Of a stretch of 64,000 nt of DNA, positions 1-16,800 are shown piece after piece. Within the stretch, counting starts at the first letter, position 1. Each line of letters begins with the position of its first letter. A model generated the notes under the pieces. That model saw only the letters and a program-made list of their open reading frames with translations, was not told the origin of the DNA and searched no databases. The position numbers and the translations under genes were made by a program. The DNA comes from Kaistia adipata DSM 17808 (GTDB lineage: Bacteria; Pseudomonadota; Alphaproteobacteria; Rhizobiales; Kaistiaceae), in NCBI RefSeq assembly GCF_000423225.1, contig NZ_KE383992.1:2971-66970 (forward strand), written 5' to 3'.

Positions 1-1
1 G

Positions 2-100
2 AACGGCACCAACTCCTTGACCTATGGTCGGGGAGCCTGTGGCGTATACAACAGGCTTTCCGAGCTAAAGGCCATGGGGCCGTTTCGTGACGGTTACTAA
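2..100 (+). CDS. C-terminal end of an unidentified protein (5' end outside window)
   Basis: An open frame enters from the left edge and stops with TAA at 98-100, giving about 32 residues that end in FRDGY. Both other forward frames look less protein-like. The next gene starts 75 bases downstream on the same strand, so the two may be co-transcribed. I do not recognise the family. It sits beside integrative-element genes, so a conjugation or maintenance protein is a guess only. Confidence 0.3.
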   Translation, partial: NGTNSLTYGRGACGVYNRLSELKAMGPFRDGY

Positions 101-175
101 CTCCCCGATCACCAAGAGTCAGAGAGAATCGTTTGCGGGGGCGCACCGCAGACAAAGCTCTCTCGGATACGGGGA

Positions 176-469
176 ATGACTATGCGGGTTCCCGTCGAAC
201 TCGATCCAGATGTGGACGATGAAGCGCCGACCGGCGACACCATAACCGTCTATGACGAACAACATTACGTCACATATCTGCGTTTGCTGGATGCGAAGGC
301 CGAGGGCGCGGACTGGAAGGAAGTCGCGCGGATCGTGCTGCACCGTGATCCGGCCGCTGAGGAACTGCTGACCCGCCGTTGCTGGCAAAGCCATCTCGAA
401 CGCGCGCAATGGCTATCGCGTGAAGGCTATCGGAAGATTCTGGAGCAGGCGGCAGCCAATAGGGCGTGA
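176..469 (+). CDS. Small DUF2285 family protein (QseM-like position)
   Basis: The protein has 97 residues. After an acidic N-terminus of about 30 residues comes the DUF2285 core, seen as YLRLLDAKAEGADWKEVARI, then a conserved W-x-SHLERAQW-x(4)-GY-x-KIL tail. DUF2285 proteins are common on integrative elements of Hyphomicrobiales. The best-studied small member is QseM of ICEMlSymR7A, an antiactivator that blocks TraR and FseA. This gene converges on a frameshifted DUF6499/DUF2285 gene, which fits an activator/antiactivator pair, but that role is inferred from family and position. The ATG at 176 follows a purine-rich GGGGA. Family call is firm; function is not. Confidence 0.75.
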   Translation: MTMRVPVELDPDVDDEAPTGDTITVYDEQHYVTYLRLLDAKAEGADWKEVARIVLHRDPAAEELLTRRCWQSHLERAQWLSREGYRKILEQAAANRA

Positions 470-487
470 GGTCGATGGCCGTGCCCA

Positions 488-1180
488 TCAACGCTTGTCG
501 GGCTTGATCGGATAGTGGAGCAGAAGGCGATAGCCCCCGCGCATCATCTTGATGCCGTGCGCGACCAGGCGGCGGGCTTTGTTCTTGCGCGGATCGCTCT
601 CGAAATCCTCCTTCGTGCCGCGAAAGCCGAGCAGGACTTCAGCGATGGTGCGATAGCTTTCGCCGCGCAACCGCGCGTCAAGCGCGCGCAGGGTCAAGAT
701 ATGCCATTGCCGGAGTTGGGCAGGCACGGCTCGGAAATCAGGACCGGGCGCGCGACCGTTGAGGGACCGCCAAAATCGGCGGGCCGCGTGAGCACGCAGT
801 TCCAGAAACGAATCCATCGGCAACGTGACGGCGTAGAATGCGGCGGCATCGGGCACGGCATCGGGCAGCCAGAATTGATGCGCGACGCCATCCACCTGCC
901 AGATGCCGTGCCAACCATCGGCGGCGCGGCGCAAGTCAAGGCCATCGAGATGCGCCAGCGTCAATATTGGTTCGGTATCGCCGTTCTTGTGATCGACCGG
1001 CGACAACATCACCGCTTGCGGGTGAAGATTCGGATTCCAGATCGGCGATTGCGGGTCATGCTGCGCGTCGGGATCGCACGGGAAATCGCAAGCCCCAGCG
1101 ATGTGCAAACATTTCGAGGTCACTGCCGGTCGGTTCCCCGGTCCTAGCGATGGTCTCGAAGTCCTGACGATAATCGTCAT
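488..1180 (-). CDS. DUF2285 C-terminal half, probably expressed by +1 frameshift from the upstream ORF
   Basis: From about 1078 down to 488 the frame encodes CDPDAQHDPQSPIWNPN, then a W-x-P-type linker, then a DUF2285 domain with FWRSLNGR, QLRQWHILTLRALDARLRGE, SYRTIAEVLLGFRG and a basic C-terminus. Residues upstream of about 1078 in this frame are shadow of the DUF6499 ORF. There is no convincing ribosome site of its own, so translation is most simply explained by a frameshift from the ORF starting at 1271. In ICEMlSymR7A the equivalent pair msi172-msi171 makes FseA, which turns on excision. It might instead be a broken gene; the absence of decay on either side argues against that. Confidence 0.75.
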   Translation of the reverse strand: MTIIVRTSRPSLGPGNRPAVTSKCLHIAGACDFPCDPDAQHDPQSPIWNPNLHPQAVMLSPVDHKNGDTEPILTLAHLDGLDLRRAADGWHGIWQVDGVAHQFWLPDAVPDAAAFYAVTLPMDSFLELRAHAARRFWRSLNGRAPGPDFRAVPAQLRQWHILTLRALDARLRGESYRTIAEVLLGFRGTKEDFESDPRKNKARRLVAHGIKMMRGGYRLLLHYPIKPDKR

Positions 1181-1271
1181 TCCGGCGCAGGTATTCCCAA
1201 GCGAAACCGGCGGCCGGAATTTGCTTCGCGTGTCTGTATGCCGCCGGCAAACGCCAGTCGATGCTTAGCAT
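1056..1271 (-). CDS. DUF6499 / transcriptional-regulator-like N-terminal half of an FseA-type activator
   Basis: The zero-frame ORF encodes 71 residues starting MLSIDWRLPAAYRHAKQI and containing FAWEYLRRNDDYRQDFE, the hallmark of the small DUF6499 domain that precedes DUF2285 in mobile-element regulators. The ATG at 1271 has a good GAGAGGTGA site 5 bases upstream, so the longer frame to 1376 is not used. The frame ends in a TGA at 1056-1058, just after the motif RWGLRFP. In intact fusion relatives that motif leads straight into the DUF2285 half. Here that continuation lies in the +1 frame, in the ORF ending at 488. A +1 slip on TTT CCC G TGC would join the halves into a protein of about 260 residues. 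Confidence 0.75.
   Translation of the reverse strand: MLSIDWRLPAAYRHAKQIPAAGFAWEYLRRNDDYRQDFETIARTGEPTGSDLEMFAHRWGLRFPVRSRRAA
1076..1085 (-). other. Candidate +1 programmed ribosomal frameshift site
   Basis: On the minus strand the zero frame reads CGA TTT CCC GTG CGA. Skipping the G at 1079 after CCC gives TTT CCC TGC GAT CCC, which continues RWGLRFP into CDPDAQHD and the DUF2285 domain. CCC is a proline codon known to be prone to +1 slippage. The zero-frame stop lies seven codons downstream. FseA translation by +1 frameshifting is established for ICEMlSymR7A; its occurrence here is inferred from the frame arrangement. Confidence 0.6.
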
Positions 1272-1467
1272 GGCGTCACCTCTCAAAGCCGGGGCGCGCG
1301 AGGCTGCGCCCGGACAAGAGAGATTCAAGTATCTATTCAAGTAATATAAGATGCTCAAAGCAGATATATTGATCATCTAACGCGATCAATATTGGTTATT
1401 TTCTTCTTAACACTATCTCGTTGAGTTTTACAGTCGTCGCCCGCATGTGCGAGCAAGCGACCGGCCT

Positions 1468-1995
1468 TCATCTGCTGGAAAACACATGGACCTCATCATG
1501 TGCGGTCTCTACGGTGAAAAGGTCGCCACTCATTTCAGCGTCTCGCGCCATTGCCTGCCAATCGACATAGTAGCGTAGCGCCTCGGGAATCGTGATGCTC
1601 TCGGTGGTCAGTTCCTCCATGTAATCGGCGAGACTGCCAAACTGACCATGATAGCAGTCCTGCAAGGCGGTTTCGGCTTGGTCCATGTCGCCGATGAACT
1701 GCTCCAGCAAGCCCGCGCCGAGTGCGCCATGCTCTGAGATGAAAGCGCCTATACGCGCCACGGTGTCGATGCCGGCATATTCGCTGATCGTGATGCCCTC
1801 GAAGCCTTCAAAGTCGTGGATGGCGTATTCCTCTGCGTGCGCGATGGGGGACCGTGCCAGCATGGTCACAATCTTATCCCTGATTTGGTCCGCGTCCTGA
1901 TCCGCGTCGATCCAAGCCCCATGCAGATAGCCGCTATTGTAGGCGGCAAGGCAGGCCACATAGATGCGGGGGCTGCTCTCGGATATGTTGGTCAT
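1468..1995 (-). CDS. ardA: Antirestriction protein ArdA
   Basis: The 175-residue protein has the standard ArdA opening PRIYVACLAAYNSGYLHGAW and the acidic central segment EEYAIHDFEGF with ISEYAGID. It is strongly acidic overall. ArdA dimers mimic bent B-form DNA and occupy the DNA-binding groove of type I restriction enzymes, protecting incoming conjugative DNA. Length matches the family (about 165-180). It lies beside the DUF6499/DUF2285 regulator, as expected for an integrative conjugative element. It reads away from the defence operon that follows, with a 640-base gap between the divergent starts. Confidence 0.92.
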   Translation of the reverse strand: MTNISESSPRIYVACLAAYNSGYLHGAWIDADQDADQIRDKIVTMLARSPIAHAEEYAIHDFEGFEGITISEYAGIDTVARIGAFISEHGALGAGLLEQFIGDMDQAETALQDCYHGQFGSLADYMEELTTESITIPEALRYYVDWQAMARDAEMSGDLFTVETAHDEVHVFSSR

Positions 1996-2403
1996 GTCTC
2001 TGATCCTCGGGTCTGAAGGTCAGCGAAGCGGAACGCCGCGCCTGACCTTCTGGCCGTCGCCGAGACTGGGGTAGCAACGAGCAAGGGCGACCGGGGTGGA
2101 GGGGGATCACCCGGCATGCACAAGCCCCTCGGGGTGCGGAAGGCTGGGGATGCCGCCCCGGACGGTTCCACTTACCTTGCTGGCGCGAGGGCAAGGCCCT
2201 TAGCAAAATTGTTGAGGATCGCGCGGCGGCGGCCGTGCCGGCCCGGAGGCGAACGCGCTTCCACATTGCGCTGTAGAGAGCCGGAGGGCAGCGAGTGGCA
2301 AAGCCACGCCACCACCTTTTCTCCGTCGCAAACATCCTGCAACAGACTGAACAGAAAGGATATTTCAGCGGTTCAAACGGCATCGAGCCAGTTCCGCGCC
2401 AAT

Positions 2404-2424
2404 GGGGAGACTTCGGCCCTCCCC
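2404..2424. repeat. Inverted repeat, GGGGAG stem
   Basis: GGGGAG (2404-2409) pairs with CTCCCC (2419-2424) around a nine-base loop. No T-run follows on either strand. It could be a structured leader, a protein-binding site or a processing element. Confidence 0.4.
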
Positions 2425-2471
2425 AAATCCCATCGACAAGGAAGCGTTCCTGCTCCCATTGACCCATAACC

Positions 2472-2491
2472 GAGGAGCTTTCGAGCTCCTC
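2472..2491. repeat. Perfect hairpin with TTCG tetraloop
   Basis: GAGGAGCT at 2472-2479 and AGCTCCTC at 2484-2491 form an eight-pair stem closed by TTCG, an exceptionally stable tetraloop. There is no T-run. It lies 145 bases upstream of the OLD-nuclease gene. Confidence 0.55.
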
Positions 2492-2636
2492 TGGACACTC
2501 CCGGTCAACCCTGAGCGGATTGGATGCCTTCAGGAGTTTCGCGCTCTGAACCATGGCCGAGCAACCAACAGGCGGATATTGACCTTTTGCTTCAGGGAGT
2601 CTCGATGCTATTCTAGGACACAGGGGGAGTGTCAAA

Positions 2637-4235
2637 GTGTTCATACATCGCGTCGTTATTCAAAATTACCGCTGCCTAAAAGCAGCGGATGTCATAATGA
2701 ACGACAATCTAAACGTGATCGTCGGAAACAACGAATGCGGAAAATCTACGCTTCTTGAAGCCGTTCACCTCGCGTTGTCCGGTCAGCTCAATGGCCGACC
2801 GCTTGTGGTGGAGATGCACCCGTATCTGTTCAATCTCGACCTTGTACGCAAATACATCGATAGTCTAGCAGCAGGCGAGAAACCACACCCCCCGCACATC
2901 CTCCTTGAGGTTTATCTCGCCGACGACCCGAACCTGACTAAGCTCAAGGGCGATCACAATTCGCTTAAAATAGACCGCCCCGGCGTATCGCTCAGCATTG
3001 AGCTTAATCCATCACATGCCGAAGACTTCATTCAGTATGTCAGCGATCCCGCAGAAATTCGCACCGTTCCGATTGAATATTATCGTATCGTATGGCGCAA
3101 CTTTGCAGGCAACGACATTGCCCACTCTCGCGACATTCCACTTCACGCGAGCCTCATCGACGCCAGCACGCTCAAGAACAATGCTGCCGCAAGCAGGTAT
3201 GTCGTGGACATTGTTAAAGAGAGCCTGTCGGCACAAGAAAAAGTCGATCTTGCTCTCACTTATCGTCTGATGAAGGACCGCTTTCTGGAGCAGCCCAAGG
3301 TCAAAACAATCAATGACGCGCTTGCTCTAAAAAAAGGGAAGATCAGCGAGAAAACCATATCTGTTTCGCTCGACACGTCGGCCCGTGCGAGTTGGGAGGC
3401 AGGGGTAATGCCCCACCTCGACGACATTCCGCTCACGCTTGTCGGCAAGGGTGAGCAGAACGCCGTCAAGATCAAGCTCGCGATGGAGACGTCCGCCAAG
3501 TCCCACATCATCCTGATCGAAGAGGCGGAAAACCATCTCTCCTACGCCAGCCTCAACGAGTTGATCGGGCATATTTCCGCGAACGCGGGCACGAGACAGA
3601 TTTTTATTACGACCCATAGCAGCTTTGTGCTGAACAAACTGGGCGTAGAGTCGGTGCTCCTGTTCCAGCGAGGCAGCGGCGTTCGGCTTTCTGATTTAGC
3701 AAATACGTCAACACAAGACTATTTCATGAAGCTGCCGGGCCACGACACGCTGCGTCTTATTCTCGCTAAGCGGTCCATTTTGGTCGAAGGCCCATCCGAC
3801 GAGCTGATTGTGCAGCGCGGCTACCAAAAAAAGCACGGAAAGATGCCACTGGAAGATGGAGTCGACGTGATTTCCGTCAACTCCCTCGCCTTTAAACGCT
3901 TTCTCGAAATTGCGGTTCTGCTAAAAACCGAGACCGATGTCGTGACCGACAATGATGGCAGCGTGGCCGGGCTGCTGGCGAAATATGCTAATTACCTCAC
4001 CTCGGATGTTGTCAAAATCCGGTACGACACGGACGAGACGGCCAAGACCCTTGAGCCACAGCTCGTCAAAAAGAACGGGCTGACAACCATAAATGCGGTA
4101 CTCGGCAAGACTTTCACCGACGAAGCGAGCGCCATCGAATACATGGTCAAGAACAAGGCAGATGTAGCCTTGAGGTTCTTCGAGACCACCGTGGATTGGT
4201 CCGTGCCGGACTATATAGCCGATGCCATCCGCTAG
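2637..4235 (+). CDS. OLD-family nuclease: ABC-type ATPase plus TOPRIM domain (GajA-like)
   Basis: The 532-residue protein opens as an SMC/RecF-like ATPase (VVIQNYRCL) with Walker A GNNECGKST at residues 30-38, an ABC-signature-like LVGKGEQN near 283, and Walker B HIILIEEAEN near 290-300 followed by THSS. A TOPRIM nuclease domain follows: ILVEGPSDE at about 381-389 and VVTDNDG at about 434-440, the acidic residues that bind metal. Class 2 OLD nucleases sit beside UvrD-like helicases, exactly as here; GajA of the Gabija anti-phage system is one. The GTG start at 2637 has GGGGGAG seven bases upstream. The next gene overlaps its end by 14 bases. Family is firm; Gabija function is inferred. Confidence 0.85.
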   Translation: MFIHRVVIQNYRCLKAADVIMNDNLNVIVGNNECGKSTLLEAVHLALSGQLNGRPLVVEMHPYLFNLDLVRKYIDSLAAGEKPHPPHILLEVYLADDPNLTKLKGDHNSLKIDRPGVSLSIELNPSHAEDFIQYVSDPAEIRTVPIEYYRIVWRNFAGNDIAHSRDIPLHASLIDASTLKNNAAASRYVVDIVKESLSAQEKVDLALTYRLMKDRFLEQPKVKTINDALALKKGKISEKTISVSLDTSARASWEAGVMPHLDDIPLTLVGKGEQNAVKIKLAMETSAKSHIILIEEAENHLSYASLNELIGHISANAGTRQIFITTHSSFVLNKLGVESVLLFQRGSGVRLSDLANTSTQDYFMKLPGHDTLRLILAKRSILVEGPSDELIVQRGYQKKHGKMPLEDGVDVISVNSLAFKRFLEIAVLLKTETDVVTDNDGSVAGLLAKYANYLTSDVVKIRYDTDETAKTLEPQLVKKNGLTTINAVLGKTFTDEASAIEYMVKNKADVALRFFETTVDWSVPDYIADAIR

Positions 4236-5304
4236 CCGCATCGTTATAGCCGCCGCCGGCGGCGGCAAGACCACCCGCGTCGTCGATCAGGCGCTAGGTG
4301 CTGACACAGGCATTACGGCGCTTGTGACATACACGCGGAATAATATCCGCGAGATCGGGCTCAAGATGCATGAACGCTCAAGGGCGATCCCTCCGCATGT
4401 CGAGGTGATTTCGTGGTACACGTTCCTCTTGCATGAACTGGCCCGCCCCTACCAGTCAGCAATGCACTCCCGCAGGATCGATGGATTTTTTTGGACCGAA
4501 GGAAAGTCGGTCATTTATGCGCCGGAGGCCAACACGGCAGCACATTATTTTTCCGATGGCCGCCTAATCTACTCCGATAAAATCTCGAAGTTCATCTGCG
4601 CGTGCGACGCCAAATCCGGCGGTTCGGTGATGCGAAGGTTGCGGCAGCGGTTTGCCCATATCATCATCGACGAAATTCAGGACATGGCGGGCTACGACCT
4701 AGATTTGCTGGAGCTGATGCTCAGGTCGAACGTCAGGGTGACGTTCGTCGGCGATCACCGCCAAGCCACCTTTGCCACCAACAATGCTCCGAAGAACAAG
4801 GCTTTCCGAGGCCCGGCTATCATCAATAAGTTCGAAGCATGGAAGAAGGCAGGACTAGTCTCGATTGACTACGAGAGCGAAACTTACCGCTGCAATCAGG
4901 CGCTTGCTAATCTTGGCGACAGCTTCTTCCCGAACGAGCCGAAAACGAAATCACTCAATGGCACGATCACAGGACACGACGGCGTGTTCCTCGTCAAAAG
5001 TGCCGACGTGGACGCCTACATGCATCAGTTCGCGCCGCAGGCTCTACGCTACTCCGCAGCAACGAACTGCGAGCTTCCCGGAGTCATGAATTTTGGAGAA
5101 TCGAAAGGGCTCACGTTCGACCGCGTCATGATCTACCCGCACGGACTTGCTAAGAAATGGCTGAAAACCGGAGACCTCACTCATGTAGCTAAGTCGGTGG
5201 CGAAGATGTATGTTGCATCAACACGCGCGCGGTATAGTGTCGCGTTTGTCTATGACGGCGCGACCTGTGCTATCCCCGCCACTCGGTGGATGGCAGTCGT
5301 CTGA
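4222..5304 (+). CDS. Compact UvrD/Rep-like SF1 helicase (GajB-like)
   Basis: The 360-residue protein has Walker A AAAGGGKTT (residues 10-18), motif II IIIDEIQDM near 148, motif III VTFVGDHRQA near 174, a motif V-like ESKGLTFDRVM near 293 and motif VI MYVASTRAR near 330. That is a complete set of SF1A ATPase motifs in a protein clearly shorter than GajB (around 500 residues) or UvrD (over 700), so the 1B/2B accessory domains must be small or missing. It overlaps the OLD gene by 14 bases and touches the next gene by one base. In Gabija the helicase partner joins the nuclease complex; the same coupling is likely here. Confidence 0.82.
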   Translation: MPSASRIVIAAAGGGKTTRVVDQALGADTGITALVTYTRNNIREIGLKMHERSRAIPPHVEVISWYTFLLHELARPYQSAMHSRRIDGFFWTEGKSVIYAPEANTAAHYFSDGRLIYSDKISKFICACDAKSGGSVMRRLRQRFAHIIIDEIQDMAGYDLDLLELMLRSNVRVTFVGDHRQATFATNNAPKNKAFRGPAIINKFEAWKKAGLVSIDYESETYRCNQALANLGDSFFPNEPKTKSLNGTITGHDGVFLVKSADVDAYMHQFAPQALRYSAATNCELPGVMNFGESKGLTFDRVMIYPHGLAKKWLKTGDLTHVAKSVAKMYVASTRARYSVAFVYDGATCAIPATRWMAVV

Positions 5305-5882
5305 TGGGCAACATCAAAACCAACTCAGCACCTAAAATCGCCTGTATCGGCTGGGGTTCGCTCATATGGGAGCCGCGTGATTTGCCTATAATTGGCGATT
5401 GGCATTCTAACGGGCCTAGCCTTCCGGTGGAGTTTGCTCGGCAATCCTCCGCAGATCATATCACACTCGTCATAGTTGAAAGCGATCATCGCGTTCCCAC
5501 GCTGTGGGCCGAGTTGAATGTGGAGACCGTCGCTCAAGCCGTTGAGGCGCTCAGGGTAAGGGAGGGCGTGCCCTATGAAAGTTCAATCGGCCGTTGGCCT
5601 AACGATACTCAAAAAGAATATCTATCGAGCGATGCTATAGCCGAGTGGGCAACAGCGAATGGAGTGCAGGCAGTTGTATGGACCGCGCTGCTGCCGGGAA
5701 TGAAGGGAAATAGGGGTTCGATTCCAACCCTGGACGAATTAACCGTCCACCTCGCAAAGCTGGAAGGCTCAGCTCTCTCAAAAGCCAAAATCTACATAGC
5801 GAATGCGCCGTCTCAGATAGCCACGCCTTATCGGCAAGACCTTGCCAAGGCTTGCGAAACCTCGTCGAGCGATACGCTATGA
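5304..5882 (+). CDS. Gamma-glutamylcyclotransferase-like (GGCT-fold) protein of unknown role
   Basis: The 192-residue protein begins KIACIGWGSLIWEPRDL (residues 12 on), the glycine-rich strand-loop seen in GGCT/AIG2-like folds (Y/W-G-S-L). The ATG at 5304 overlaps the helicase stop as TGATG; a longer frame to 5286 has no support. Its stop overlaps the next start as ATGA. GGCT-fold enzymes cleave gamma-glutamyl amide bonds with release of 5-oxoproline, acting on small molecules or protein adducts. A role inside a nuclease-helicase operon is not known to me. The fold assignment rests mainly on the N-terminal motif, so it is moderate. Confidence 0.6.
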   Translation: MGNIKTNSAPKIACIGWGSLIWEPRDLPIIGDWHSNGPSLPVEFARQSSADHITLVIVESDHRVPTLWAELNVETVAQAVEALRVREGVPYESSIGRWPNDTQKEYLSSDAIAEWATANGVQAVVWTALLPGMKGNRGSIPTLDELTVHLAKLEGSALSKAKIYIANAPSQIATPYRQDLAKACETSSSDTL

Positions 5883-7570
5883 CAGATGGCGGCCGTAAGT
5901 TTTCTGAGCTGCGTCACGACCTGCTTGATCCACAAGCGGACCACTATGAGGTGCCTTTGACATTCGCCGCGACGCTGCGTGCGCACGGTTCATATGAGAC
6001 CACGCGCTTCGTGCTGCGCCTCAGCCCGAAAAATCATGAGCTGGTGGATAAGCTTGAGGTAAACGCATACGGCGACGGTCCCATCCCTTGGGAAGCGATA
6101 CAGGCTTACTCGACCTACATTCACGAGACCATACACTGGTGGCAGCATGTGGGCTCGACGTCAGGACTGCTGCTGAGCCTGAGCTATTTCTCGCAGCTAC
6201 ATTCGACAATGGACGAGCTTCGGGAATGCCTGAAAAGGTTTGGCCCGATCAAATCGCTGAAACGATATACCGATGAGGTGTTGCTGGACGAAGGATGGGA
6301 GGCTCAGGAAAAGCTCGCTCCAGCAAACTTTGCTGTAAATAATGCGCTCGATATATTCTACTATAAATCATACGCTCTTCGCCCAAGGCAGGCAATACAA
6401 TGGATGATTAAAGATAATCATTTCGAAGACATTGGATATATGTATAGCATCGTTTACGGACAGCTTATCGGCTTGGTTTCAGGTGCTATCGATCCAGAAT
6501 TCCAATTTTTGCCAAGCCTAGAGCGCCTCAGCGAAGAAACTCTTCGCTTACATACAGAAGGCCATGAGGGGTTTGTAAAAAACTCAAACGTGCATCTTCC
6601 TTATGTTGGACTTCACGCGATTTACGAAGGGCAGGCACGTTTCATTCAGCTTGATTTTCTTAATCGCGCGCGGGACGAGCCGTTGACCTGCGAGGAGTGG
6701 CGAACCGAGGGCTATCTCTCAGGCATATACGTTGAGGCTTTTGAAAGCTTCCTGAAGCATACGGAAACGGAATGGCCCTCTTCTCTTTCCGACCCGATTG
6801 TCCCGCTTTTCCTTTTGGTGTGCGATCTCGCGATCAATCCTACGCGCGGGCTCCCGTTTGATTTCGGCCATTTGGAAAACTTGATCCACCACGTCGATGT
6901 AGGAATACGGTTTGCCGAATTTTGCTTCGCGATCAAAGACGCACCGAATTTGAAATCCGCGATAAAGAAATTATCTTTAGAGGAATATGTTGAGGTTTCA
7001 AGCGAGCTTTGTAAAGCGCGCCATTACGACCATCCAATGGCAGCTTTGGAAGAGGTAGTGCGATGGGCGGAGGAATATCCGCTTGTTCAGCGGCTTATGG
7101 AGGAGCACCGGACATTCAAATTCAACCCTGAGAACCTGAATATCAGAGTCTTTCTTTCGCACTACATTTCGATGTGTAAAGACAAGTATGAACATCCGCA
7201 CTTTTTCTGCTGGCCGGGGGCATATATGGCAGGTCATCCGAGCGAGGTGGATTTCCGACAAGTATGGTTGCGCCACTTGTCGCTGTTTAGCGACAAGGCC
7301 GACAAGGACGGGGTATACCCCCGAAAATGGCCCGACCGCTCTGAAAAGGCTGTGATGGAAACCTTCAATCGCTTTTATGGCACGATGGCGCTCTATGAAT
7401 TAACCGAGCAATGGATTTTGCGCGATGGGCCGTTCAATTGTGATTTTAGCTGGATGTCTGACAATTACGATGAACAGTCTTTCAGAGGCTGGGCAAATGA
7501 CAGTTTCAGAAAGGCTTTCGGGGCTGATCTTTCCGCGTTCAAAATTCTAGGCTCCAAGCCGCAGACGTAA
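5879..7570 (+). CDS. HExxH zincin-like protein, last gene of the OLD-helicase operon
   Basis: The 563-residue protein carries YIHETIHWWQHVGSTSG, a clear HExxH zinc-protease motif at residues 82-86, with a possible third ligand Glu250 in IYEGQARF. The rest is helical and I recognise no named family; no signal peptide or membrane segment is visible, so it should be cytosolic. ATG at 5879 overlaps the preceding stop (ATGA); the upstream TTG at 5852 is less likely. Translational coupling through four genes suggests one functional unit. A proteolytic effector or regulator would be the natural hypothesis, but only the motif is seen. Confidence 0.65.
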   Translation: MTDGGRKFSELRHDLLDPQADHYEVPLTFAATLRAHGSYETTRFVLRLSPKNHELVDKLEVNAYGDGPIPWEAIQAYSTYIHETIHWWQHVGSTSGLLLSLSYFSQLHSTMDELRECLKRFGPIKSLKRYTDEVLLDEGWEAQEKLAPANFAVNNALDIFYYKSYALRPRQAIQWMIKDNHFEDIGYMYSIVYGQLIGLVSGAIDPEFQFLPSLERLSEETLRLHTEGHEGFVKNSNVHLPYVGLHAIYEGQARFIQLDFLNRARDEPLTCEEWRTEGYLSGIYVEAFESFLKHTETEWPSSLSDPIVPLFLLVCDLAINPTRGLPFDFGHLENLIHHVDVGIRFAEFCFAIKDAPNLKSAIKKLSLEEYVEVSSELCKARHYDHPMAALEEVVRWAEEYPLVQRLMEEHRTFKFNPENLNIRVFLSHYISMCKDKYEHPHFFCWPGAYMAGHPSEVDFRQVWLRHLSLFSDKADKDGVYPRKWPDRSEKAVMETFNRFYGTMALYELTEQWILRDGPFNCDFSWMSDNYDEQSFRGWANDSFRKAFGADLSAFKILGSKPQT

Positions 7571-7824
7571 ATGGCAGGGGCGAAGTCCATCCAAACGTTG
7601 AATGCGCGCGGCAATGTCATGCTTTAGGTCACGTGCGACTATTTTAGAAAGCCGCCGATTCTAAGCTATGACCCGATATTCTGGTAGCGGCACACGGCAG
7701 CTTCCCACTCCATTCCCGACAAAACTACCACTGATTGTCACCTCTACTTGGAATACTTCCATTTCGGTTCTTGCTTGATCATTCTCGGCCCCGTACGCTC
7801 TTCGTCGCAGCGGGGGGCTGAACA

Positions 7825-8862
7825 ATGGCAAAGCGTTTTCCATGGAAAAGAAATTACCTTATAATTCCGCCGTTTGTGCAGAGCGCACTTAATGACATTG
7901 ACGGCGACTTCATCGCTGTCGCTGCGACAAAGAAAATCAAACGTGAAGATATTGAAGCGGGGCAGTATAGTCACGCTGGATTAAGCATAGACGGCTCCTT
8001 CATCATCGCCGTTGGTCCAACCCACCCCCCTGCCGATGCAGGAAAGTGGTCTGAGCGGAACGCTTATGGCTGGGACCGTAAGCGTGAGGATTGGCCGATG
8101 GTCCAGAAGACATGGACCTTCGAGTCACCCAACTTCGGGGACGGCGCGCGCAACGGCTGGACAATGCGTTCTTGGACAAAAGACGTTTACCAGCACCAAA
8201 TTTTTGAACCGCAGGGCATGACCATCGAAGCGAGTGTACTTGAAGATAGAGGCGGCGAGCAGGTGGTAGTCAAATTTGCTCTCGCGCCCATGCTTAGCCG
8301 AAGCGCAGCCGAGTTCGACTTAATGCTGCTTTGGGCGATCAACGTCCTGCAAGAGAATACGGGCGTCACGGGCGTGTTCGCGAGCGACGCGACGCGCGAA
8401 GAATACATTTCAACCGTCGCGCTGGACTGGCAAATTTTCCCGCCGGGCAACGCTGACGAAGTTGTTGCTCGCTTGTTGGGATCGGCCGATCCGACGAACG
8501 CCGCCGACTTTGAGAAGCATGTTCGCGAGCGGGTGCGACTGTTCGAGGGTTTCGAGCCGAGGGCCTACATACGCGGTCAGGGCGGCTTCGGCTCATATTT
8601 CGGAGCACAGTTTGCTGACGATTTAGTCGTGTTCGAGAACCTTAGATACGGCAACGCGGTCTATTTGCTGTATCAAGATTGGAATGAAGCATCGCAACGG
8701 TCGCGGCTCGATCTTCTCCGCGATCAGGACGCACACTTTGATCGCGTAGTGCATACTGATGGATGGCAAGATAGGCTTGTATCACTGTTGCACGATAAGC
8801 TCTTTGAACGCGGCCTACGGCGGCGGCGGAGTGGCTACCGGTCAAAACGTAGCGGCCGCTGA
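7825..8862 (+). CDS. Unknown protein, first gene of the TIR module
   Basis: The 345-residue protein has no motif I can assign. It opens with a basic MAKRFPWKRNYLIIPPFV, has a mixed alpha/beta middle with many aromatic residues (WTFESPNFGDGARNGW) and ends in a very basic RRRRSGYRSKRSGR, which could bind nucleic acid. No signal peptide or clear membrane helix. The ATG at 7825 follows GGGGGG at proper spacing. The gene lies 255 bases after the metalloprotease-like gene, so it probably has its own promoter, and 62 bases before the TIR gene, so the two likely form an operon. It may be the sensor or partner of the TIR protein. Confidence 0.6.
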   Translation: MAKRFPWKRNYLIIPPFVQSALNDIDGDFIAVAATKKIKREDIEAGQYSHAGLSIDGSFIIAVGPTHPPADAGKWSERNAYGWDRKREDWPMVQKTWTFESPNFGDGARNGWTMRSWTKDVYQHQIFEPQGMTIEASVLEDRGGEQVVVKFALAPMLSRSAAEFDLMLLWAINVLQENTGVTGVFASDATREEYISTVALDWQIFPPGNADEVVARLLGSADPTNAADFEKHVRERVRLFEGFEPRAYIRGQGGFGSYFGAQFADDLVVFENLRYGNAVYLLYQDWNEASQRSRLDLLRDQDAHFDRVVHTDGWQDRLVSLLHDKLFERGLRRRRSGYRSKRSGR

Positions 8863-8924
8863 CTTGCTGGAAAACAACTTCAACGTTCCGACAGAACAGT
8901 GGATGAGCAGGAGGGGGAGAGCAT

Positions 8925-9641
8925 ATGGCTAGATGTACTGCACCAGTAAGGGGACACCGCTCGGCGGCGGCGGCAGCCGACTGCCCCGCATGCGGAGGGC
9001 GTTATGGTCGCTCGGGGGGGTATGGCAGCTACGGCAGTTACAGTGATTATAGTAGCTATCGGCCATCTCCCACCCCTTCTTCGTCGGTTAACCGGGGCGG
9101 TGGCAGTTCGGGGCAGCGCAGCTCAAAGCCGCGCTGGTCCCCATCGAGTTCCGGGGTGTGGTACACGACTGAAGAAGTGAGGACACTTACTCCTGTCCGT
9201 GAATCTGTCGAAAGCCTCGCAGTTTCGCAGCCTGATCTCCGAGACGTTTTCCTGTGCCACGCGTGGGATGACCGACAGGGGGCCGCGAAAGACCTTCATG
9301 ACCTTCTCGAAGCGCGCGGTGTTCGCGTGTGGTTTAGCGAAAAGGACCTCGGCCTTGGGGTGCCAATGATGCGGGCGATTGACAAGGGCTTGGTGAACTC
9401 TCGCGTAGGTATCGTGCTGGTTACGCCGGCCATGTTGCGTCGCCTACCGGCAGAAGGTGTCGCGGACAAAGAGCTTTCAGCGCTTCTTCGACGTGAGCGG
9501 CTCGTGCCAGTTGTACACGGAACGACGTACGAGGAACTTGAGAAGGTCAGCCTTCTACTAGCGTCTCGGGCTGGGTTGAACACTGCCGAAGAATCTATGG
9601 CGGCAGTTGCGGCTAAGATTGCCGAGTTGGTCGCGGCTTAG
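8925..9641 (+). CDS. TIR-domain protein with N-terminal Cys/His knuckle and low-complexity linker
   Basis: The 238-residue protein has three parts. Residues 1-24 hold C4, H11, C20 and C23, spaced like a small zinc knuckle. Residues 25-85 are almost all Gly, Ser, Tyr, Pro and Arg, a disordered tether. From about residue 105 is a TIR domain: DVFLCHAWDDR, then VWFSEKDLGLG with the Glu expected for an NADase catalytic residue, then RVGIVLVTPAML. Bacterial TIR domains in defence systems degrade NAD or make cyclic nucleotide signals. A strong AGGAGGGGGA lies just upstream of ATG 8925. The role in defence is inferred from the domain and neighbours. Confidence 0.85.
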   Translation: MARCTAPVRGHRSAAAAADCPACGGRYGRSGGYGSYGSYSDYSSYRPSPTPSSSVNRGGGSSGQRSSKPRWSPSSSGVWYTTEEVRTLTPVRESVESLAVSQPDLRDVFLCHAWDDRQGAAKDLHDLLEARGVRVWFSEKDLGLGVPMMRAIDKGLVNSRVGIVLVTPAMLRRLPAEGVADKELSALLRRERLVPVVHGTTYEELEKVSLLLASRAGLNTAEESMAAVAAKIAELVAA

Positions 9642-10053
9642 GAAAATCGGGTGATAAGCGGGTTGAGCGTCCGAACTCGGGACTAGGTGCCACCAGATCG
9701 CGATTGTGCCTGAAAGGCGGGTTTCATGGAATGTCCGCTGGAACCCGCTACTCCGCTTCGCACCCCATTTTAGCCATTCGTTCTTGCTTCAATTTAGAGG
9801 GCTATAGCGTAGGTGTAGTTCTCCGTTTCGTCGGCTTCGGCCCGCCATTCATCCAAGCCGATAGCTTTGAAACTGCCTGGCAACGGGTCGCTGGACAGGC
9901 ATCTGTCCGGACCTTCACCGCCGCCGATGCAGCCTGCTCGCCGCCGCGCTCGTCAGCGTGCGCGGACGACGCGATTCAAGCCGAGCGCTTCCGCTGTCGC
10001 GTCGGCCGGATGGCCCATGCCCATCCGCTGTCGCAAATCGAATCCCCGGATTC
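9642..10053. other. Non-coding interval at the likely edge of the accessory region
   Basis: About 410 bases with no credible gene. Base composition shifts here from the more AT-rich accessory block to the GC-rich backbone. I see no tRNA gene, integrase or obvious direct repeat, so an attachment site cannot be named. Confidence 0.4.
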
Positions 10054-12099
10054 TCAATCCTCGCCCAGGTCGGCGAATTCGTTGCGGAGAGGCGTCGTCC
10101 GGCCCGAAACAGGATCGTCCCGGCCTGCCGCCTCGACGAGAGGCAGGGAGAGACGGAATGTCGACCCGTCGGCACGGCTGGCGACGAGGGTGAGGTCGCC
10201 GCCATGCTGCCGGGCGATCTCGCGCGAAATGTAGAGACCCAGGCCCGATCCGTTCGTCCGCTGGCCCGCGGCGCGATAGTATTTCGCGAAGACCATCTCC
10301 CGGTCCTCTGGCCGCACGCCGGTGCCGCGGTCCTCCACGTCCACGAACGCGACCTCCGGATCGACGCTCAGGCGAACCGTGACCGGGCTTCCGGCCGGCG
10401 AGTATTTCAGCGCGTTCTGGATCAGGTTCTGCAGCGTGATCTCCAGCAGGTAGCGGTCGCCACGGACCAGGACTTCGCGGCCGTGCAGGACGCGCACGCG
10501 CTCGGCGGAATCATCATCGAGCCCGGCCCTGGCGACCTCGAGGATATCGTTCAGGTCCAGCGTCTCGATCATCGCGTGCGGGGCCTCGCCGGCATCGAGC
10601 CGGTCGCCGGCGAGCACATTCTCGATCAGGATCGACATCCGCTTGACCGTCTGGCGGATCTTGGTCGCGCGCAACCTGATGTTGTCGGCGCCCTCGGCCC
10701 CGAAATGCGAGAGATTGTCGGCCGCCGCCGCGATCACCGCCAGCGGTCCGCGAAACTCGTGCGATACCACCGCCACGAAGTCGCGCTGCTGGGCCAGGGC
10801 GTCGTTGACGGAATCGAGCGACTGCCTGAGCTTCGCCTCAAGCCCATGGCGCCGATCCATCTCCGCCTTGAGCGAGGCGTTGCTTTCGGCAAGCTCCGAC
10901 GTCCGCTCGCGGACCTTGATCGTGAGGTCGCGCTCGGCCGCCTTCGAGATCGCGATCACGCGATCCTGTTCCGCGCGCAGACGACGCTCGGCAAGCTGGG
11001 TCGCGATGCGGCCGCCGAGCAGGATCAGGGCGAGGCCGAGCCCCGCCGCCAACCCCGCCGTCACCAGATGCTGCGTGCGCATCGGGGCCAACTCATCCAG
11101 CGCAGCCAGCGTGAGCAGTCGGTAAGGCGTATTCATTAGCGCCTGACGCCTCAGGAGATAGGGCCTGCCTTCGATGAGCCATTGGTCGGTTTGCCCGGCC
11201 TCGGCCAACGCCCGCACGGCCATGGGCTCACCGAGTTCTTCCTCGCCGTCAGGCGGCGCGATCGTGCCTGGCGGCAGAAGCGCCGCGACGTTGCGCAGCA
11301 TGAAGGGCTCGGACGAGGTGGTGATCACGCGCCCCTGGCGGTTCACGATCAACGCCACGTGGCGCCCTGTCAGGTAGTGCGCCACGTCCGGCGCATCGAA
11401 CTTCACCGTGACTGAGCCCAGCGGAACACCACTGTCGTCATCGATGCGGCTGGCTACGAAATAGGATGGAGTTTTGTTCAGGCGTGCGATGCCAAAGGAG
11501 GAGCCCGTGCCGTTGCGCAGCGCCTCGAGGAGATAGGGCCGGCCCGAATAGATCATGCCGACGATGCTGTCCGGCTCGGCCCAGTTGCTGGCAGTCACCG
11601 TATCGTCCGACATGTTGTTCATGTAGATGCGGGCATAGTCCAGATCGCTTGCCAGCCCGTTCATGAAGTCGCCGACCGCCCGCACCAGCGGGTCGCGCGT
11701 GAATTGGGCGGCGCGCTGCTGCCGCGTCAGGTCGATGGCGCCGGGCGGATCGGTGCGGTAGCGGGCCGCGAGCTGAACCACCTGGGCCTGGTTCGCCACC
11801 ATGTTGGCGACGCTGACCATTTCGGTGAACAACCGGTCCATGACGCGGGCGGTGGTGGTGGCCTCGTATTCGGCGCTCGCTGCCAGGCTGTCGAGCTGCT
11901 CTGTCAGGATGCGCTGCGACATCCACCAGCCCGTGCCGGCGACCAGCGCCAGCCAGGCGACGGCAACGATCAGCGTCACCCGGCGCACGATCCGCATCTG
12001 CCGCTTGCGCTGGCCATTGCGCGGCAGCCCATGGTTCTCTCCCTCCCCGCCGAGAGAGCGAACGCCCGAAACGGCCTCCTCCATCGCCGTGCCCGTCAT
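10054..12099 (-). CDS. Membrane sensor histidine kinase with periplasmic dCACHE-type domain
   Basis: The protein has 681 residues from the ATG at 12099, chosen because GGAGG lies seven bases upstream; earlier ATGs at 12132 and 12105 are less well placed. A membrane helix near residues 38-55, a periplasmic domain of about 260 residues with RNGTGSSFGIARL and NRQGRVITTS (double-CACHE, small-ligand binding), a second helix, a coiled coil, then H-box VVSHEFRGPLAVI, N-box NLIQNALKYSP, G1 DRGTGVRPEDR and G2 GSGLGLYISREIA. It is divergent from the response regulator at 12410, its likely partner. The ligand is unknown; DctB-like organic acid sensing is possible. Confidence 0.88.
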   Translation of the reverse strand: MTGTAMEEAVSGVRSLGGEGENHGLPRNGQRKRQMRIVRRVTLIVAVAWLALVAGTGWWMSQRILTEQLDSLAASAEYEATTTARVMDRLFTEMVSVANMVANQAQVVQLAARYRTDPPGAIDLTRQQRAAQFTRDPLVRAVGDFMNGLASDLDYARIYMNNMSDDTVTASNWAEPDSIVGMIYSGRPYLLEALRNGTGSSFGIARLNKTPSYFVASRIDDDSGVPLGSVTVKFDAPDVAHYLTGRHVALIVNRQGRVITTSSEPFMLRNVAALLPPGTIAPPDGEEELGEPMAVRALAEAGQTDQWLIEGRPYLLRRQALMNTPYRLLTLAALDELAPMRTQHLVTAGLAAGLGLALILLGGRIATQLAERRLRAEQDRVIAISKAAERDLTIKVRERTSELAESNASLKAEMDRRHGLEAKLRQSLDSVNDALAQQRDFVAVVSHEFRGPLAVIAAAADNLSHFGAEGADNIRLRATKIRQTVKRMSILIENVLAGDRLDAGEAPHAMIETLDLNDILEVARAGLDDDSAERVRVLHGREVLVRGDRYLLEITLQNLIQNALKYSPAGSPVTVRLSVDPEVAFVDVEDRGTGVRPEDREMVFAKYYRAAGQRTNGSGLGLYISREIARQHGGDLTLVASRADGSTFRLSLPLVEAAGRDDPVSGRTTPLRNEFADLGED

Positions 12100-12409
12100 C
12101 GACATGCCTCCATCCGGTCCGCATCCATCCATTGGCCTTGCTTGCCTCTCGGGCGGCCAATGCGTTCGGGATGGAGCTCAAGCGGCATGTCGGATTGTCC
12201 GGAAGCGATATTGTTGGTGATGAGCGTGCCGGCGGAATCATCGGCAACGGCGTGGCAGTCGCCGCCGGAAGGCGGCCCCCCGCGCGAGCCCGCCGGCCAC
12301 GCCGGGCGGACCCAGGCGACTTGCGGCGGCAGGCATCCGGGCGGGATGGACAACGCAACCAATAGATGAAATCGAAGACTGTCGAAGTGCTGCATCGGGA
12401 GCTTGGGGG
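12100..12409. promoter_or_regulatory. Divergent promoter region of the two-component pair
   Basis: The 310 bases between the kinase and regulator starts are GC-rich, with no credible gene. Both promoters should lie here, but I could not pick convincing -35/-10 boxes. Confidence 0.35.
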
Positions 12410-13123
12410 ATGACCGGGGAAGTGGGTAGGGAGAGCGACGCCGCGATCGGTCCCCTCGTCTATATCGTGGATGATGACGAGGATTTTCGCGAGGAGATGG
12501 TGTTTGGCCTATCCAGGCTCGGCGTGAACGTCCGCGGGTTCCACGATGCCGCCGCCCTCTACCGGGCCTACGCCGCCACGCCATCCGACATCGTCATCCT
12601 CGACATTGGCCTGGAGGGCGAAGACGGCCTGTCGATCGCGAGCCATCTGCGGAGCTCGCAATCGGTCGGCATCATCATGGCAACGGCGCGGGGCTCGATC
12701 GATGACCGGGTCGGCGGCCTCAGCACGGGCGCGGACGCCTATCTCGTCAAGCCGATCGATGTCCGGGAGCTCGCCGCCACGGTGGTGGCGCTCAACGACC
12801 GCCTCGACAGGAGCCGCGCTTCCGCGCCGCCGCCGGTCCCGCAATGGGCCTTGGTGGAGGGGGGATGGGTGCTGACCGACGGCCTGGGCCATCGTCTCCG
12901 CCTCACCACGTCGGAGCAGCGCTTCCTCGATCGCCTGTTCCTCGAGCGCGGCCAGACGGTCGAACGCCGCGCGCTCGTCGAGGCGCTCGGCGCGGACGTC
13001 TATGACTTCAACTACGCCCATCTGGACACCATAGCGAGCCGCCTGCGTCGTAGAGCCCAGAAGTGCGACATGCTGCTCCCTCTGCATGCGATCCGTGGTC
13101 AAGGCTTCGCCTTCACCGAATAG
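12410..13123 (+). CDS. OmpR-like response regulator
   Basis: The 237-residue protein has a receiver domain with the acidic pair in IVDDDED, phospho-acceptor Asp in DIVILDIGLEG, the conserved Thr in MATARGS and Lys in YLVKPID. A proline-rich linker leads to a C-terminal winged-helix region (LTTSEQRFLDRLFLERGQTV, then LDTIASRLRRRAQ and IRGQGFAF), as in OmpR/PhoB transcription factors, though divergent at the start. It faces away from the kinase gene and lies upstream of the autotransporter, which may be among its targets; no operator was identified. Confidence 0.85.
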   Translation: MTGEVGRESDAAIGPLVYIVDDDEDFREEMVFGLSRLGVNVRGFHDAAALYRAYAATPSDIVILDIGLEGEDGLSIASHLRSSQSVGIIMATARGSIDDRVGGLSTGADAYLVKPIDVRELAATVVALNDRLDRSRASAPPPVPQWALVEGGWVLTDGLGHRLRLTTSEQRFLDRLFLERGQTVERRALVEALGADVYDFNYAHLDTIASRLRRRAQKCDMLLPLHAIRGQGFAFTE

Positions 13124-13859
13124 AGTGACCCGCTTAATCCAGATTCCGCAAGGTATTTTCGCAGGATTCCGACCAGTAAAACTTTCGCCTAAAGCTCTTC
13201 CAAGTGTCAGGAAGTGACAGGATCTGAAAGTTACTGAAATTGAGACTGGTCGTTCCGGCAATTATTTGAAGGGAGGGGAAGAGCTCGCGTTCGGCGCGCT
13301 CCATTGAGAAATGCAGGCGGGCGCATCGCAAGATCGGCAACGATCCCGGCACCGCATGCAGGCGGGGATGACATGGATCGGGTTCTGCTCGAAAGACCAG
13401 CCGAACCGGGGCGCGTGCGGCCATCCATATCCGTTGAGCCTATCCGGGAAGCGGCGGGGGACTTGCCCGATGATCGCCGCGCCCTGGCCACCCGAAATCC
13501 CGCCAGCTCCTTTCGTCGGTTCGCTCCGACCGCCCTCCTTGCGCGGTCCCGGTCCTCGCCGGAACGCTCCCGCGCATCGCGGCTCCCGATCCCCGTAACG
13601 AAGCTTCCGCGAACCCGGGCGATCCAAGCCGGATCGCCGATCCCGCCCGCGCGCCTCTGCGCCGCCCCGGGCGGCTCGTCGCGCGCGACCAGTCCGCCTG
13701 CGACCGGACGGCCGCCTTCCGCCGCCTGCCGCGCCCTGGCGCGCCGCGTCATCCGCTCCGGACGTCGCCCAGCCCCATGAGCCCTCGGATCGCCCGCCCC
13801 CCCGGCCCCGATTGCCTCCCATGACCTCGAACAGCCACCAGCACCATCAGGAACGAACC
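13124..13859. other. Long intergenic region upstream of the autotransporter
   Basis: About 735 bases without a convincing gene. The left third (13140-13270) is relatively AT-rich with ordinary promoter-like composition. The right part is very GC-rich and open in several frames on both strands, but none has family resemblance. It could hold a long 5' leader or a decayed gene. Confidence 0.4.
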
Positions 13860-16800
13860 ATGCGCAAAGTAAATCTCATGAAATCCGCTGGCGAAGAGAG
13901 CAATGCGTGCTCGAAGCAGGAGTCCGGCTGGCGCTCGTTCCTTGTGAGAGGGGGCCGTGCGACCAAGTACAAGGGCGTCGTCGGTGGCGTCGCGCCGCAG
14001 CTCGCCTCGGCCGGACTGGTCGCGCTGGGTGTCGTCGCGTTTTCGGGTTCCGCCGCCTATGCCGGCTCTTGCAGCACGTCCGACAACATCAACTTTGAAT
14101 GCTCGGGCGCCGCGGGCGCGCCCGGCGCCGACGCGCCAATTGTGATCAACAATTCCGGGACGACAACGGTGACGACCGCTCCGGGATTCGGGATCGACGC
14201 CAACGACACGGCCATCCGTATCGACAGCAGCGGCGTTGGTGATGTGACCTTCTCGGATACGAATGCGTCTTCGATCACGGGAGCCAATGCTGGCATTCAT
14301 CTGAACGCCACGAACACCGGCACGGTTACCGTAGAGTCGAACGGAACCATCACAGGCAACACCGGCGCGGGCATCTATTACCAAGGCACCGGCAATCAGA
14401 TGGGGCTGACCATTGACGTCAACGACGTAAATGGTGGCGGGTACGGCATAAATATCATCGACTATGACGGTTCTGACGCGGTCAACATAACCGCGAATGA
14501 TGTTACCGGCTCGGGCAACGACGGGGTCTTTGTCTCCACCGCGGGCGCGAACACCGACCTGACGATCGACGTCAATGACGTCGAAGGGGCGTGGCGGGGC
14601 ATCAACGCCATCCACAATGGTTCCGGCACCCTTTCCATCACCGCGAACGATGTCACGTCGGGCGCGGGCTACTCGGGTATCGTTGCCGATATGGGGGCGA
14701 ACACCGACGGCCTGACCATCGATGTCCATGATATCAACGCCGGGCTCTACGGCGTCCTGGCGACTGGCAATCAGGGCACGGGCGATGTTTCGATCACGGC
14801 CAACAACATCGACTCGGTCAACAACGGCATCTATGTCGACAATGGTCCGCAGACGCACGACTTCACCGTCGACGTCAACAAGATCACATCCGCCAATGCC
14901 AACGGCATCTTCGGCTACTCCAGCGGTACCGGGGACACCAACATCACGGTGCGCGACTCCATCACGGCCGGCACCAACGGCATCTGGATCGATGTGGATC
15001 CGAGCTCTGCCGCCGGCGCCACGACCATCGATGTCGGCGACATCTACGCCGGCAACGAAGGCATCAATCTCGAGGCGAATGCGAACACGACCGACCTCAC
15101 GATCAAGGTGAACGATGTCACGTCGGGCGCCAGTGGCATTCGGTTCAACACCTGGGGTTCCGGCGACGTCAAGGTCACCGCCAACGATATCGACGCAGGC
15201 TTCATCGGCGTCTGGCTCGACACGGATTGGACCACCAAGGACCTGACCATCGACGTGAACAACATCACGGCCGCTGACGACGGCATCAATGCCGTCCACA
15301 GCGGCGACGGCTCGGTCAACATCACGGTGCGCGATTCCATCGTCTCCGGCGACGACGCCATCGAGCTCTATCTCGACAATGGGGCCGTCAAGGACGTCAA
15401 CCTCGACATCAACAACGCCAAGGGCGCCGACTACGGCATCTATGTCGTCGACCATTCCGACGCCGTCGACCCGACCGATCCCGACGCCAACAACGACCTC
15501 ACCATCACCACCCGGGGCAATATCGAAGCCGGCAGCGGCTGGGGCATCTACACGGCAACGGATGCCGGCGTGATGACCCGGATCCACGTCAAGGACGGTT
15601 CGACCGTCCGGGCGAACAGCAACCTGGCGATCTTCAACGACGATGGCGACAGCGTGGTGACCATCGAGGACGCCTCCGAGGCCTCGAACAGCATCGTCGG
15701 TCGGATCGAGCTCGGCGCGGGCGTCGACGTCCTGAACCTGCATGGCGGCTTCTCCGGCATCACCTCGCTGTATGGCGGCAAGACTGTCGGCGACACATTG
15801 AACGTGTATGACGCCAACAGCAGCTATGATGCCGACGCGCTCGGCCCGTGGGACACGATCAACCTCGTCAACACCACGCTGAAGCTGTCGACCGGCACGG
15901 ATACGGACGTCGGCGCGGCGACGGACATGTCGAACGGCATCTTCCTGCACAATTCCGTGCTCGATGTCAGTGAAAACACCGACTACGACTCGTGGGGCAA
16001 CCTGTCGATCGACGCGACGAGCGCGTTCTATTCCCGCGGCGACGCGGTGGGGAACGGCGTCCTGATCGTCGGCGGCCTCCACAATGACGGCCTCGTCTCG
16101 CTCGCCACGCCCGCAGGCGTCGGCGTTGCCGGCGATACGCTGACCATCCAGGGCCAGTACTCGGGCGATGGCGGCGCCCTGCTGATCGACACGGTGCTCG
16201 GCGACGACACCTCCGTGACAGACCAGCTCCGTTTCCAGGGTGGCACGGCCGAAGGCACCACCCGCGTCGCGGTGAACAATACCGGCGGACTGGGCGCACC
16301 GACGGTCGAGGGCATCAAGATCATCGACGTCAGCGGTGCTTCCGACGGCACGTTCTCGCTGATCGGCGACTACAAGATCGCCGGCCAGCAGGCCGTGCTG
16401 GGCGGCGCCTATGGCTATACGCTGTGGAAGGACGGCCTCTCGACCCCGAATGACGGCGACTGGTATCTGCGTTCGCAGGTCGCTCCGTCTGGTTCGGGAA
16501 ATGGCGGCCTTCTCTACCAGCCTGGCGCGCCGGTCTTCGAGGCCTATGCGGGTGTCCTGCTCGGCCTGAACGGCCTGTCCACCCTGCAGCAGCGCGTCGG
16601 CAACCGGTCTTGGAGCGGAACGCCCGCCAGCGATTCCAAGCTGGCCGGCGAGCCCCTGTCGGGGATCGAGGGCCGCGGCATCTGGGGTCGCATCGAGGCG
16701 GCGCACACCGCGATCGATCCCAATGCCTCGACCACGGGTTCCGACTATGACTTCGACACGCTGAAGTTCCAGGCCGGCGTGGACTTCCCGGTCCTCGAGA

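What the first reader, a model, noticed from the sequence alone, without database searches (positions are those of the whole stretch)
2637..7570. Four-gene operon: OLD nuclease, compact UvrD helicase, GGCT-like protein and HExxH protease-like protein
Seen: four genes with 14-, 1- and 4-base overlaps, so they are made as a unit. The first two carry ATPase/TOPRIM and SF1 helicase motifs, the Gabija (GajA/GajB) pairing. The third resembles gamma-glutamylcyclotransferases and the fourth has HETIH with a possible third ligand. I know of no described Gabija operon extended with these two. A defence system that adds a protease and a small-molecule or adduct-cleaving enzyme would be new. The setting on an integrative element supports a defence role.
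Basis: partly seen in the sequence, partly recalled or inferred. Interest (0 to 1): 0.88.

Follow-up and report, generated by a model that had tools for sequence, protein, structure and literature searches.

The report
Gabija defence operon with two add-ons
A known type of bacterial anti-phage system (Gabija) sits here in one four-gene cassette with a glutathione-enzyme-like protein and a protein that looks like a zinc protease; both extra genes belong to unnamed families that usually live elsewhere, so this is a rare, modular variant whose extra genes are worth testing.

The parts
2637..4235 (+). GajA, compact OLD-family ATPase/TOPRIM nuclease, 532 aa
   Evidence: PADLOC PDLC00102 E 1.4e-234 over 1-532; Pfam AAA_15, AAA_21, OLD-like_TOPRIM; G30, N32, G35, K36, E295, E296, H327, E384, D438, D440 invariant in 11 of 11 compact GajA (motif names recalled, TOPRIM residues as in PMC10781630)
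4222..5304 (+). GajB, compact UvrD-type SF1 helicase, 360 aa
   Evidence: PADLOC PDLC00148 E 2.3e-139; Pfam UvrD-helicase E 7.3e-9; G13, G15, K16, D150, E151, Q153, D154, G177, D178, R180, Q181, K295, G296, R335 invariant in 10 of 10
5304..5882 (+). Gene 3: ChaC/GGCT-fold protein, 192 aa; GWGSL loop (16-20) and Arg86-Glu87 invariant
5879..7570 (+). Gene 4: putative zinc metallopeptidase (gluzincin-like), 563 aa; HETIHWWQ 82-89 and EGQA 250-253
   Evidence: H82, E83, H86, E250 kept in 78 of 78 rows of A3 (two of the rows, L015 and L089, are the same DNA); AF2 model pLDDT 89.2, pTM 0.90, H82-H86 in helix 71-92 and E250 in helix 245-264; no Pfam, PADLOC or NCBIfam match, one weak PHROG row of unknown function at E 0.0075
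2377..7646 (.). Cassette: the only stretch of window 1-15000 shared with Brucella sp. 21LCYQ03 L010 (94.8%)
   Evidence: blastn
9800..9820 (+). att-like repeat at the right border of the island (the same core flanks the cassette on both sides in L010)

Best explanation
A compact-subtype Gabija operon (GajA nuclease-ATPase plus GajB helicase) extended by two accessory genes and carried as one cassette on an integrative element. Shown here: gene identities by profile, operon overlaps, conserved catalytic-type residues, co-transfer of all four genes, and the joining of gene 3 or gene 4 to nuclease/helicase defence genes in other lineages. Inferred: GajAB recognises and cuts phage DNA as in studied Gabija; gene 4 is a zinc peptidase that widens or completes this, most plausibly by cleaving proteins on the invading DNA ends that GajAB works on (or a host factor as a back-up); gene 3 is a gamma-glutamyl cyclotransferase-like enzyme or ligand-binding regulator that tunes it. 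The two extra genes are optional modules, not core Gabija parts.
For: PADLOC hits to GajA and GajB over full length with motifs invariant. Overlaps of 14, 1 and 4 bases. Same four genes in L010 with unrelated flanks and att-like repeats on both sides. A second operon, GajA-GajB-gene 4-SRAP, in Paracoccus aurantiacus (L015; GajA 80%, GajB 72%, gene 4 58% identical). GajB-type helicase (PDLC04173 E 7.7e-63) directly before gene 4 in Bradyrhizobium L021, far away in the gene-4 tree. Gene 3 directly after a very different Gabija pair in L105 (PDLC00070 E 4.6e-235, PDLC00117 E 5.4e-238), 68 bases after an OLD nuclease in L125, and 151 bases after a UvrD-type helicase in L149. Gene 4 beside GmrSD, an AbiJ-type gene and a type I restriction enzyme. 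Gabija is proposed to act where end-binding proteins keep RecBCD off phage DNA (PMC12407980, abstract seen), which gives a peptidase a plausible substrate. Genes 3 and 4 each occur in 1 of 385 class genomes, the window's own, so repeated adjacency looks unlikely by chance (probability not computed).
Against: Most gene-4 and gene-3 loci show no Gabija beside them, and 0 of 11 other compact GajA loci have gene 3 or 4. The four-gene form is seen in two assemblies only, whose proteins are 94-98% identical. In plasmids none of the 30 listed L105-type GajA records is a gene-3 record. Some partners of gene 4 are plain metabolic or integrase genes. Zinc binding, peptidase and cyclotransferase activity are not shown; the gene-4 model has no significant PDB match. 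The DNA-end substrate is a guess.
Confidence: 0.5

Rival explanations
1. Co-packed but independent defences: a complete two-gene Gabija, plus gene 4 and gene 3 that each act alone, kept together only by shared transcription and co-transfer.
For: Gene 4 has none of the other three genes beside it in most loci and is a lone gene at one fixed place in plasmid records and viral contigs that carry phage structural genes (L004, L006, L092, L093, L095, L097-L099); gene 3 is alone in many; the 8 compact Gabija plasmid loci read have two genes.
Against: Overlapping reading frames, and nuclease/helicase partners joined in several lineages.
Confidence: 0.3
2. Gene 4 is a Lit-like abortive-infection protease (Lit recalled from memory): GajAB senses infection and gene 4 then cuts an essential host protein.
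For: HExxH metallopeptidase-like features; place after nuclease or restriction genes in several operons.
Against: Gabija of PA14 is described as non-abortive (section heading of PMC12407980); gene 4 stands without a recognised sensor in most loci.
Confidence: 0.15
3. Genes 3 and 4 are DNA-damage helpers (for example removal of DNA-protein crosslinks) that protect host or element DNA, not anti-phage effectors.
For: Gene 4 is followed by an SRAP gene (abasic-site crosslinking family, recalled) in L015, preceded by one in L062, and follows a UmuC/DinB-type gene, SRAP and SNase in L038; gene 3 lies near Ku, LigD and an SRAP-type gene in L008 and UvsE in L009.
Against: With two SRAP queries, SRAP was found in only 3 distinct gene-4 loci nearby and one more about 5.5 kb away (L082), of 95; other partners are restriction or abortive-type genes.
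Confidence: 0.15

Closest known systems
Gabija (GajA-GajB), class 2 OLD nuclease plus UvrD-type helicase
   Same: Genes 1 and 2 match PADLOC GajA/GajB over full length and keep the ATPase, TOPRIM (E and DxD, as named for B. cereus GajA in PMC10781630, passages seen) and SF1 motifs.
   Different: Compact forms (532 and 360 aa); two further overlapping genes. Gabija operons are described with two genes in the passages I saw (PMC10781630, PMC10568477).
ChaC / gamma-glutamyl cyclotransferases (human ChaC2, yeast ChaC2, GGCT, GGACT)
   Same: Predicted fold of gene 3: the top eight Foldseek rows and top twelve VIA rows are of this superfamily by title or by my reading of it; G-x-G-S-L loop and an invariant Arg-Glu at the end of helix 76-87, likely the counterpart of the conserved catalytic Glu (ChaC2 Glu83, PMC7022552, passages seen; the equivalence is my inference).
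   Different: About 15% identity; Trp in place of the Tyr of YGSL (recalled); no Pfam ChaC/GGCT hit for any of 15 members; operon with defence genes.
Gluzincin zinc metallopeptidases (M1 aminopeptidase type)
PARIS (AriA) and stand-alone OLD
   Same: Same ATPase superfamily as gene 1 (AriA E 1.8e-22).
   Different: Partner is a UvrD-type helicase; GajA models score far higher.

Membership tests
Gabija | OLD-type ABC ATPase plus TOPRIM nuclease with intact active-site residues (GajA) | tested here: met
   PDLC00102; OLD-like_TOPRIM E 1.4e-11; E384, D438, D440, G30, G35, K36 invariant in 11 of 11
Gabija | Adjacent UvrD-type SF1 helicase (GajB) | tested here: met
   (PDLC00148)
Gabija | GajA-GajB complex and anti-phage activity | not testable with these tools
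   needs experiment
ChaC/GGCT superfamily (gene 3) | GGCT-type barrel fold | tested here: met
ChaC/GGCT superfamily (gene 3) | Conserved catalytic Glu | tested here: inconclusive
   E87 kept in 15 of 15; residue-level superposition on ChaC2 Glu74/Glu83 not available
ChaC/GGCT superfamily (gene 3) | Match to the curated Pfam sequence families | tested here: not met
   0 of 15 members match a ChaC or GGCT family at E up to 1
Gluzincin metallopeptidase (gene 4) | HExxH on a helix | tested here: met
   78 of 78 in A3, but one pattern of each scan held part or all of it; the 5 plasmid relatives fetched, of 9 found by tblastn and so not chosen by it, also have it
Gluzincin metallopeptidase (gene 4) | Third ligand Glu on a following helix | tested here: inconclusive
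   E250-G-Q-A invariant in 78 of 78 and not part of any scan pattern; geometry not measured
Gluzincin metallopeptidase (gene 4) | Known peptidase fold | tested here: inconclusive

The most novel reading that the evidence does not exclude
Gene 4 founds an unrecognised, widespread family of defence-island metallopeptidases that bolt onto nuclease-helicase systems (Gabija and others); in Gabija it destroys phage DNA-end-binding proteins, and gene 3 gates it or makes a small-molecule signal, giving a proteolysis-assisted form of Gabija.
Probability: 0.2. Interest if true: 0.85.

Novelty: new variant of a known kind. Interest (0 to 1): 0.56.

Why it matters
Gabija is among the commonest anti-phage systems (more than 15% of sequenced genomes; start of the abstract of PMC10781630 in the listing) and is treated as a two-gene system. 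A cassette that adds a peptidase-like and a GGCT-like gene, with add-ons of both kinds also found after other Gabija-type genes, points to unexplored accessory layers of Gabija. It also marks two protein families, unmatched in the family libraries searched here, that recur in defence islands and can be tested directly.

Tried and rejected
Fixed four-part system: rejected on neighbourhood counts. Gene 4 as a phage structural protease: in phage-plasmid-like records it has a fixed place before a gene annotated 'capsid protein' (PHROG_1014, function unknown), but this does not explain its many chromosomal copies. PARIS or retron membership of gene 1: GajA models score far higher.

Full report
Observation. 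The four ORFs are as described: 2637-4235, 4222-5304, 5304-5882, 5879-7570, all on +, with overlaps of 14, 1 and 4 bases. Genes 1 and 2 match GajA (PDLC00102, E 1.4e-234, residues 1-532) and GajB (PDLC00148, E 2.3e-139) in PADLOC. In alignments of 11 compact GajA and 10 compact GajB, ATPase, TOPRIM (E384, D438, D440) and SF1 helicase residues are invariant (motif names recalled). Genes 3 and 4 match no family in Pfam, PADLOC or NCBIfam at E up to 1 and no convincing PHROG (one gene-4 row of unknown function at E 0.0075).

One cassette. Of window 1-15000, only 2377-7646 is shared with the 17.7 kb fetched from Brucella sp. 21LCYQ03 (L010), at 94.8%. There the cassette lies between two copies of GCTATAGCGTANNNGTAGTT (4450 and 9919); the window has the same core at 9800-9820, shortly before the point (9854) where near-identity to a Paracoccus MAG (L013, 99.9% over 6555-9854) stops. 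To the left lie ArdA and two RovC_DNA-bd proteins. So the four genes move as one cargo, most likely of integrative elements.

How general: gene 4. 95 loci were fetched (79 genome, 11 viral, 5 plasmid; the genome scan kept the best 80 of 106 confirmed stretches), 89 with more than 2 kb upstream in view. One (L010) has all four genes; L015 (same DNA as L089) has GajA-GajB-gene 4-SRAP; L014 and L024 have gene 3-gene 4; L021 has a GajB-type helicase directly before gene 4. L064 has compact GajAB 2 kb further on, and L003, L016 and L065 have Gabija-like pairs elsewhere in the fetched stretch. The other rows gave no operonic GajA, GajB or gene 3 by tblastn with the window proteins or phmmer with window, L105 and L125 queries; L013 starts inside gene 4, and the L021 helicase was missed by these queries, so this is an upper bound on absence. 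I chose 30 neighbours by hand for Pfam or PADLOC (some in both; not a random sample). They include GmrSD after a type I methyltransferase (L076), AbiJ_NTD5 (L075), a type I restriction enzyme (L035, 109 bases before gene 4), a T5orf172 protein (L043), SRAP (L062), UmuC/DinB-type polymerase, SRAP and SNase (L038), but also plain genes (L087 urocanase, L090 and L091 integrase, L027 hydrolase) and several without a match (L018, L032, L040, L048, L054, L055, L060). In plasmid records and viral contigs with phage structural genes, gene 4 is a lone gene at one fixed place (L004, L006, L092, L093, L095, L097-L099).

How general: gene 3. 26 loci were scanned with GajA/GajB queries and neighbours listed for 23; five more plasmid loci were read by annotation and scanned. 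It follows GajB in L010 and in L105, whose GajA and GajB fall to very different PADLOC models (PDLC00070, PDLC00117). It follows an OLD nuclease by 68 bases in L125, overlaps by 4 bases a protein matching the candidate-defence family PDC-S36 in L135, and follows a UvrD-type helicase by 151 bases in L149. Elsewhere it stands apart from such genes, sometimes in defence islands (Qat in L147, CBASS and Piwi in L151), sometimes near repair genes (Ku, LigD and an SRAP-type gene in L008; UvsE in L009), sometimes neither (L148), and in several viral contigs between genes that look like phage genes (L104, L109, L114; by position only).

Compact Gabija itself is common (1687 plasmid records at E up to 1e-30), but 0 of 11 other loci (L126-L128, L137-L144; L128 is a 5.3 kb contig) carry gene 3 or 4. 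In draws of 385 class genomes, gene 4 (E up to 1e-20) and gene 3 (1e-10) occur in 1 each, the window's own, and compact GajA (1e-40) in 4, own included; gene 3 occurs in 10 of 398 phylum genomes, own included, and gene 4 in 1 of 151 relatives, own included.

Tree. In the gene-4 tree (77 rows) the window and L010 group with two copies that lack these neighbours (L011, L012) and with gene 3-gene 4 (L024); L015 lies in the neighbouring clade and L021 far off. Either one old association was lost several times or gene 4 joined Gabija more than once; L021 favours at least two joinings.

Mechanism. Shown: identities, architecture, conservation, co-transfer, association in several lineages. Inferred: Gabija is proposed to attack linear DNA whose ends carry phage proteins that keep RecBCD off (PMC12407980; abstract and section list seen). 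A peptidase encoded after GajB could remove such proteins; the SRAP neighbours in three loci also fit work on protein-DNA complexes. A Lit-like abortive role and independent action remain open. Gene 3 could be an enzyme on gamma-glutamyl compounds or a sensor.

Literature. Searches for Gabija with metalloprotease, gamma-glutamyl cyclotransferase, SRAP, accessory/operon/protease/variant and four-gene operon, and for HExxH or GGCT with phage defence, listed no paper that describes this arrangement, judged by titles and starts of abstracts (one search listed 25 of 31). Passages of PMC10781630 and PMC10568477 present Gabija as two genes. Only open-licence PMC papers are held, so prior description elsewhere is possible.

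Verdict. A real, mobile, modular variant of Gabija with two add-on families that the libraries searched do not contain; not a new fixed system.

Noticed in passing
window 7825-8862 and 8925-9641: A 345-aa protein with no family match directly before a TIR protein (PADLOC ThsB PDLC00424, E 3.9e-118). Both are present in a Paracoccus MAG (L013, DNA 99.9% identical). A possible further two-gene defence unit; ThsA was not sought.
   Followed up: partly
window 9800-9820; L010 4450-4469 and 9919-9938; G000:C3:91814-91833: att-like repeat that, read on the - strand, looks like the last codons of a protein gene (my reading by eye...ENY(T/V)YAIAL stop). It marks the right border of the island and both sides of the cassette in L010.
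   Followed up: partly
L125 6308-12077: OLD nuclease plus gene-3 relative, followed about 1.4 and 2.4 kb later by a 311-aa protein and a protein that looks by eye like a reverse transcriptase.
   Followed up: no
L038 5393-9638: UmuC/DinB-type polymerase, SRAP, SNase and gene 4 in one run of genes: a damage-response-like setting for the gene-4 family.
   Followed up: no
L004, L006, L092, L093, L095, L097-L099: Gene-4 relatives at one conserved place in phage-plasmid-like genomes (a small opposite-strand gene, then a gene of about 580 aa, annotated capsid protein in L004, follow), down to 26% identity to the window protein.
   Followed up: partly
L149 1418-5552: 1141-aa UvrD-type helicase followed by a gene-3 relative, with a multiubiquitin gene at the edge of the stretch.
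   Followed up: partly
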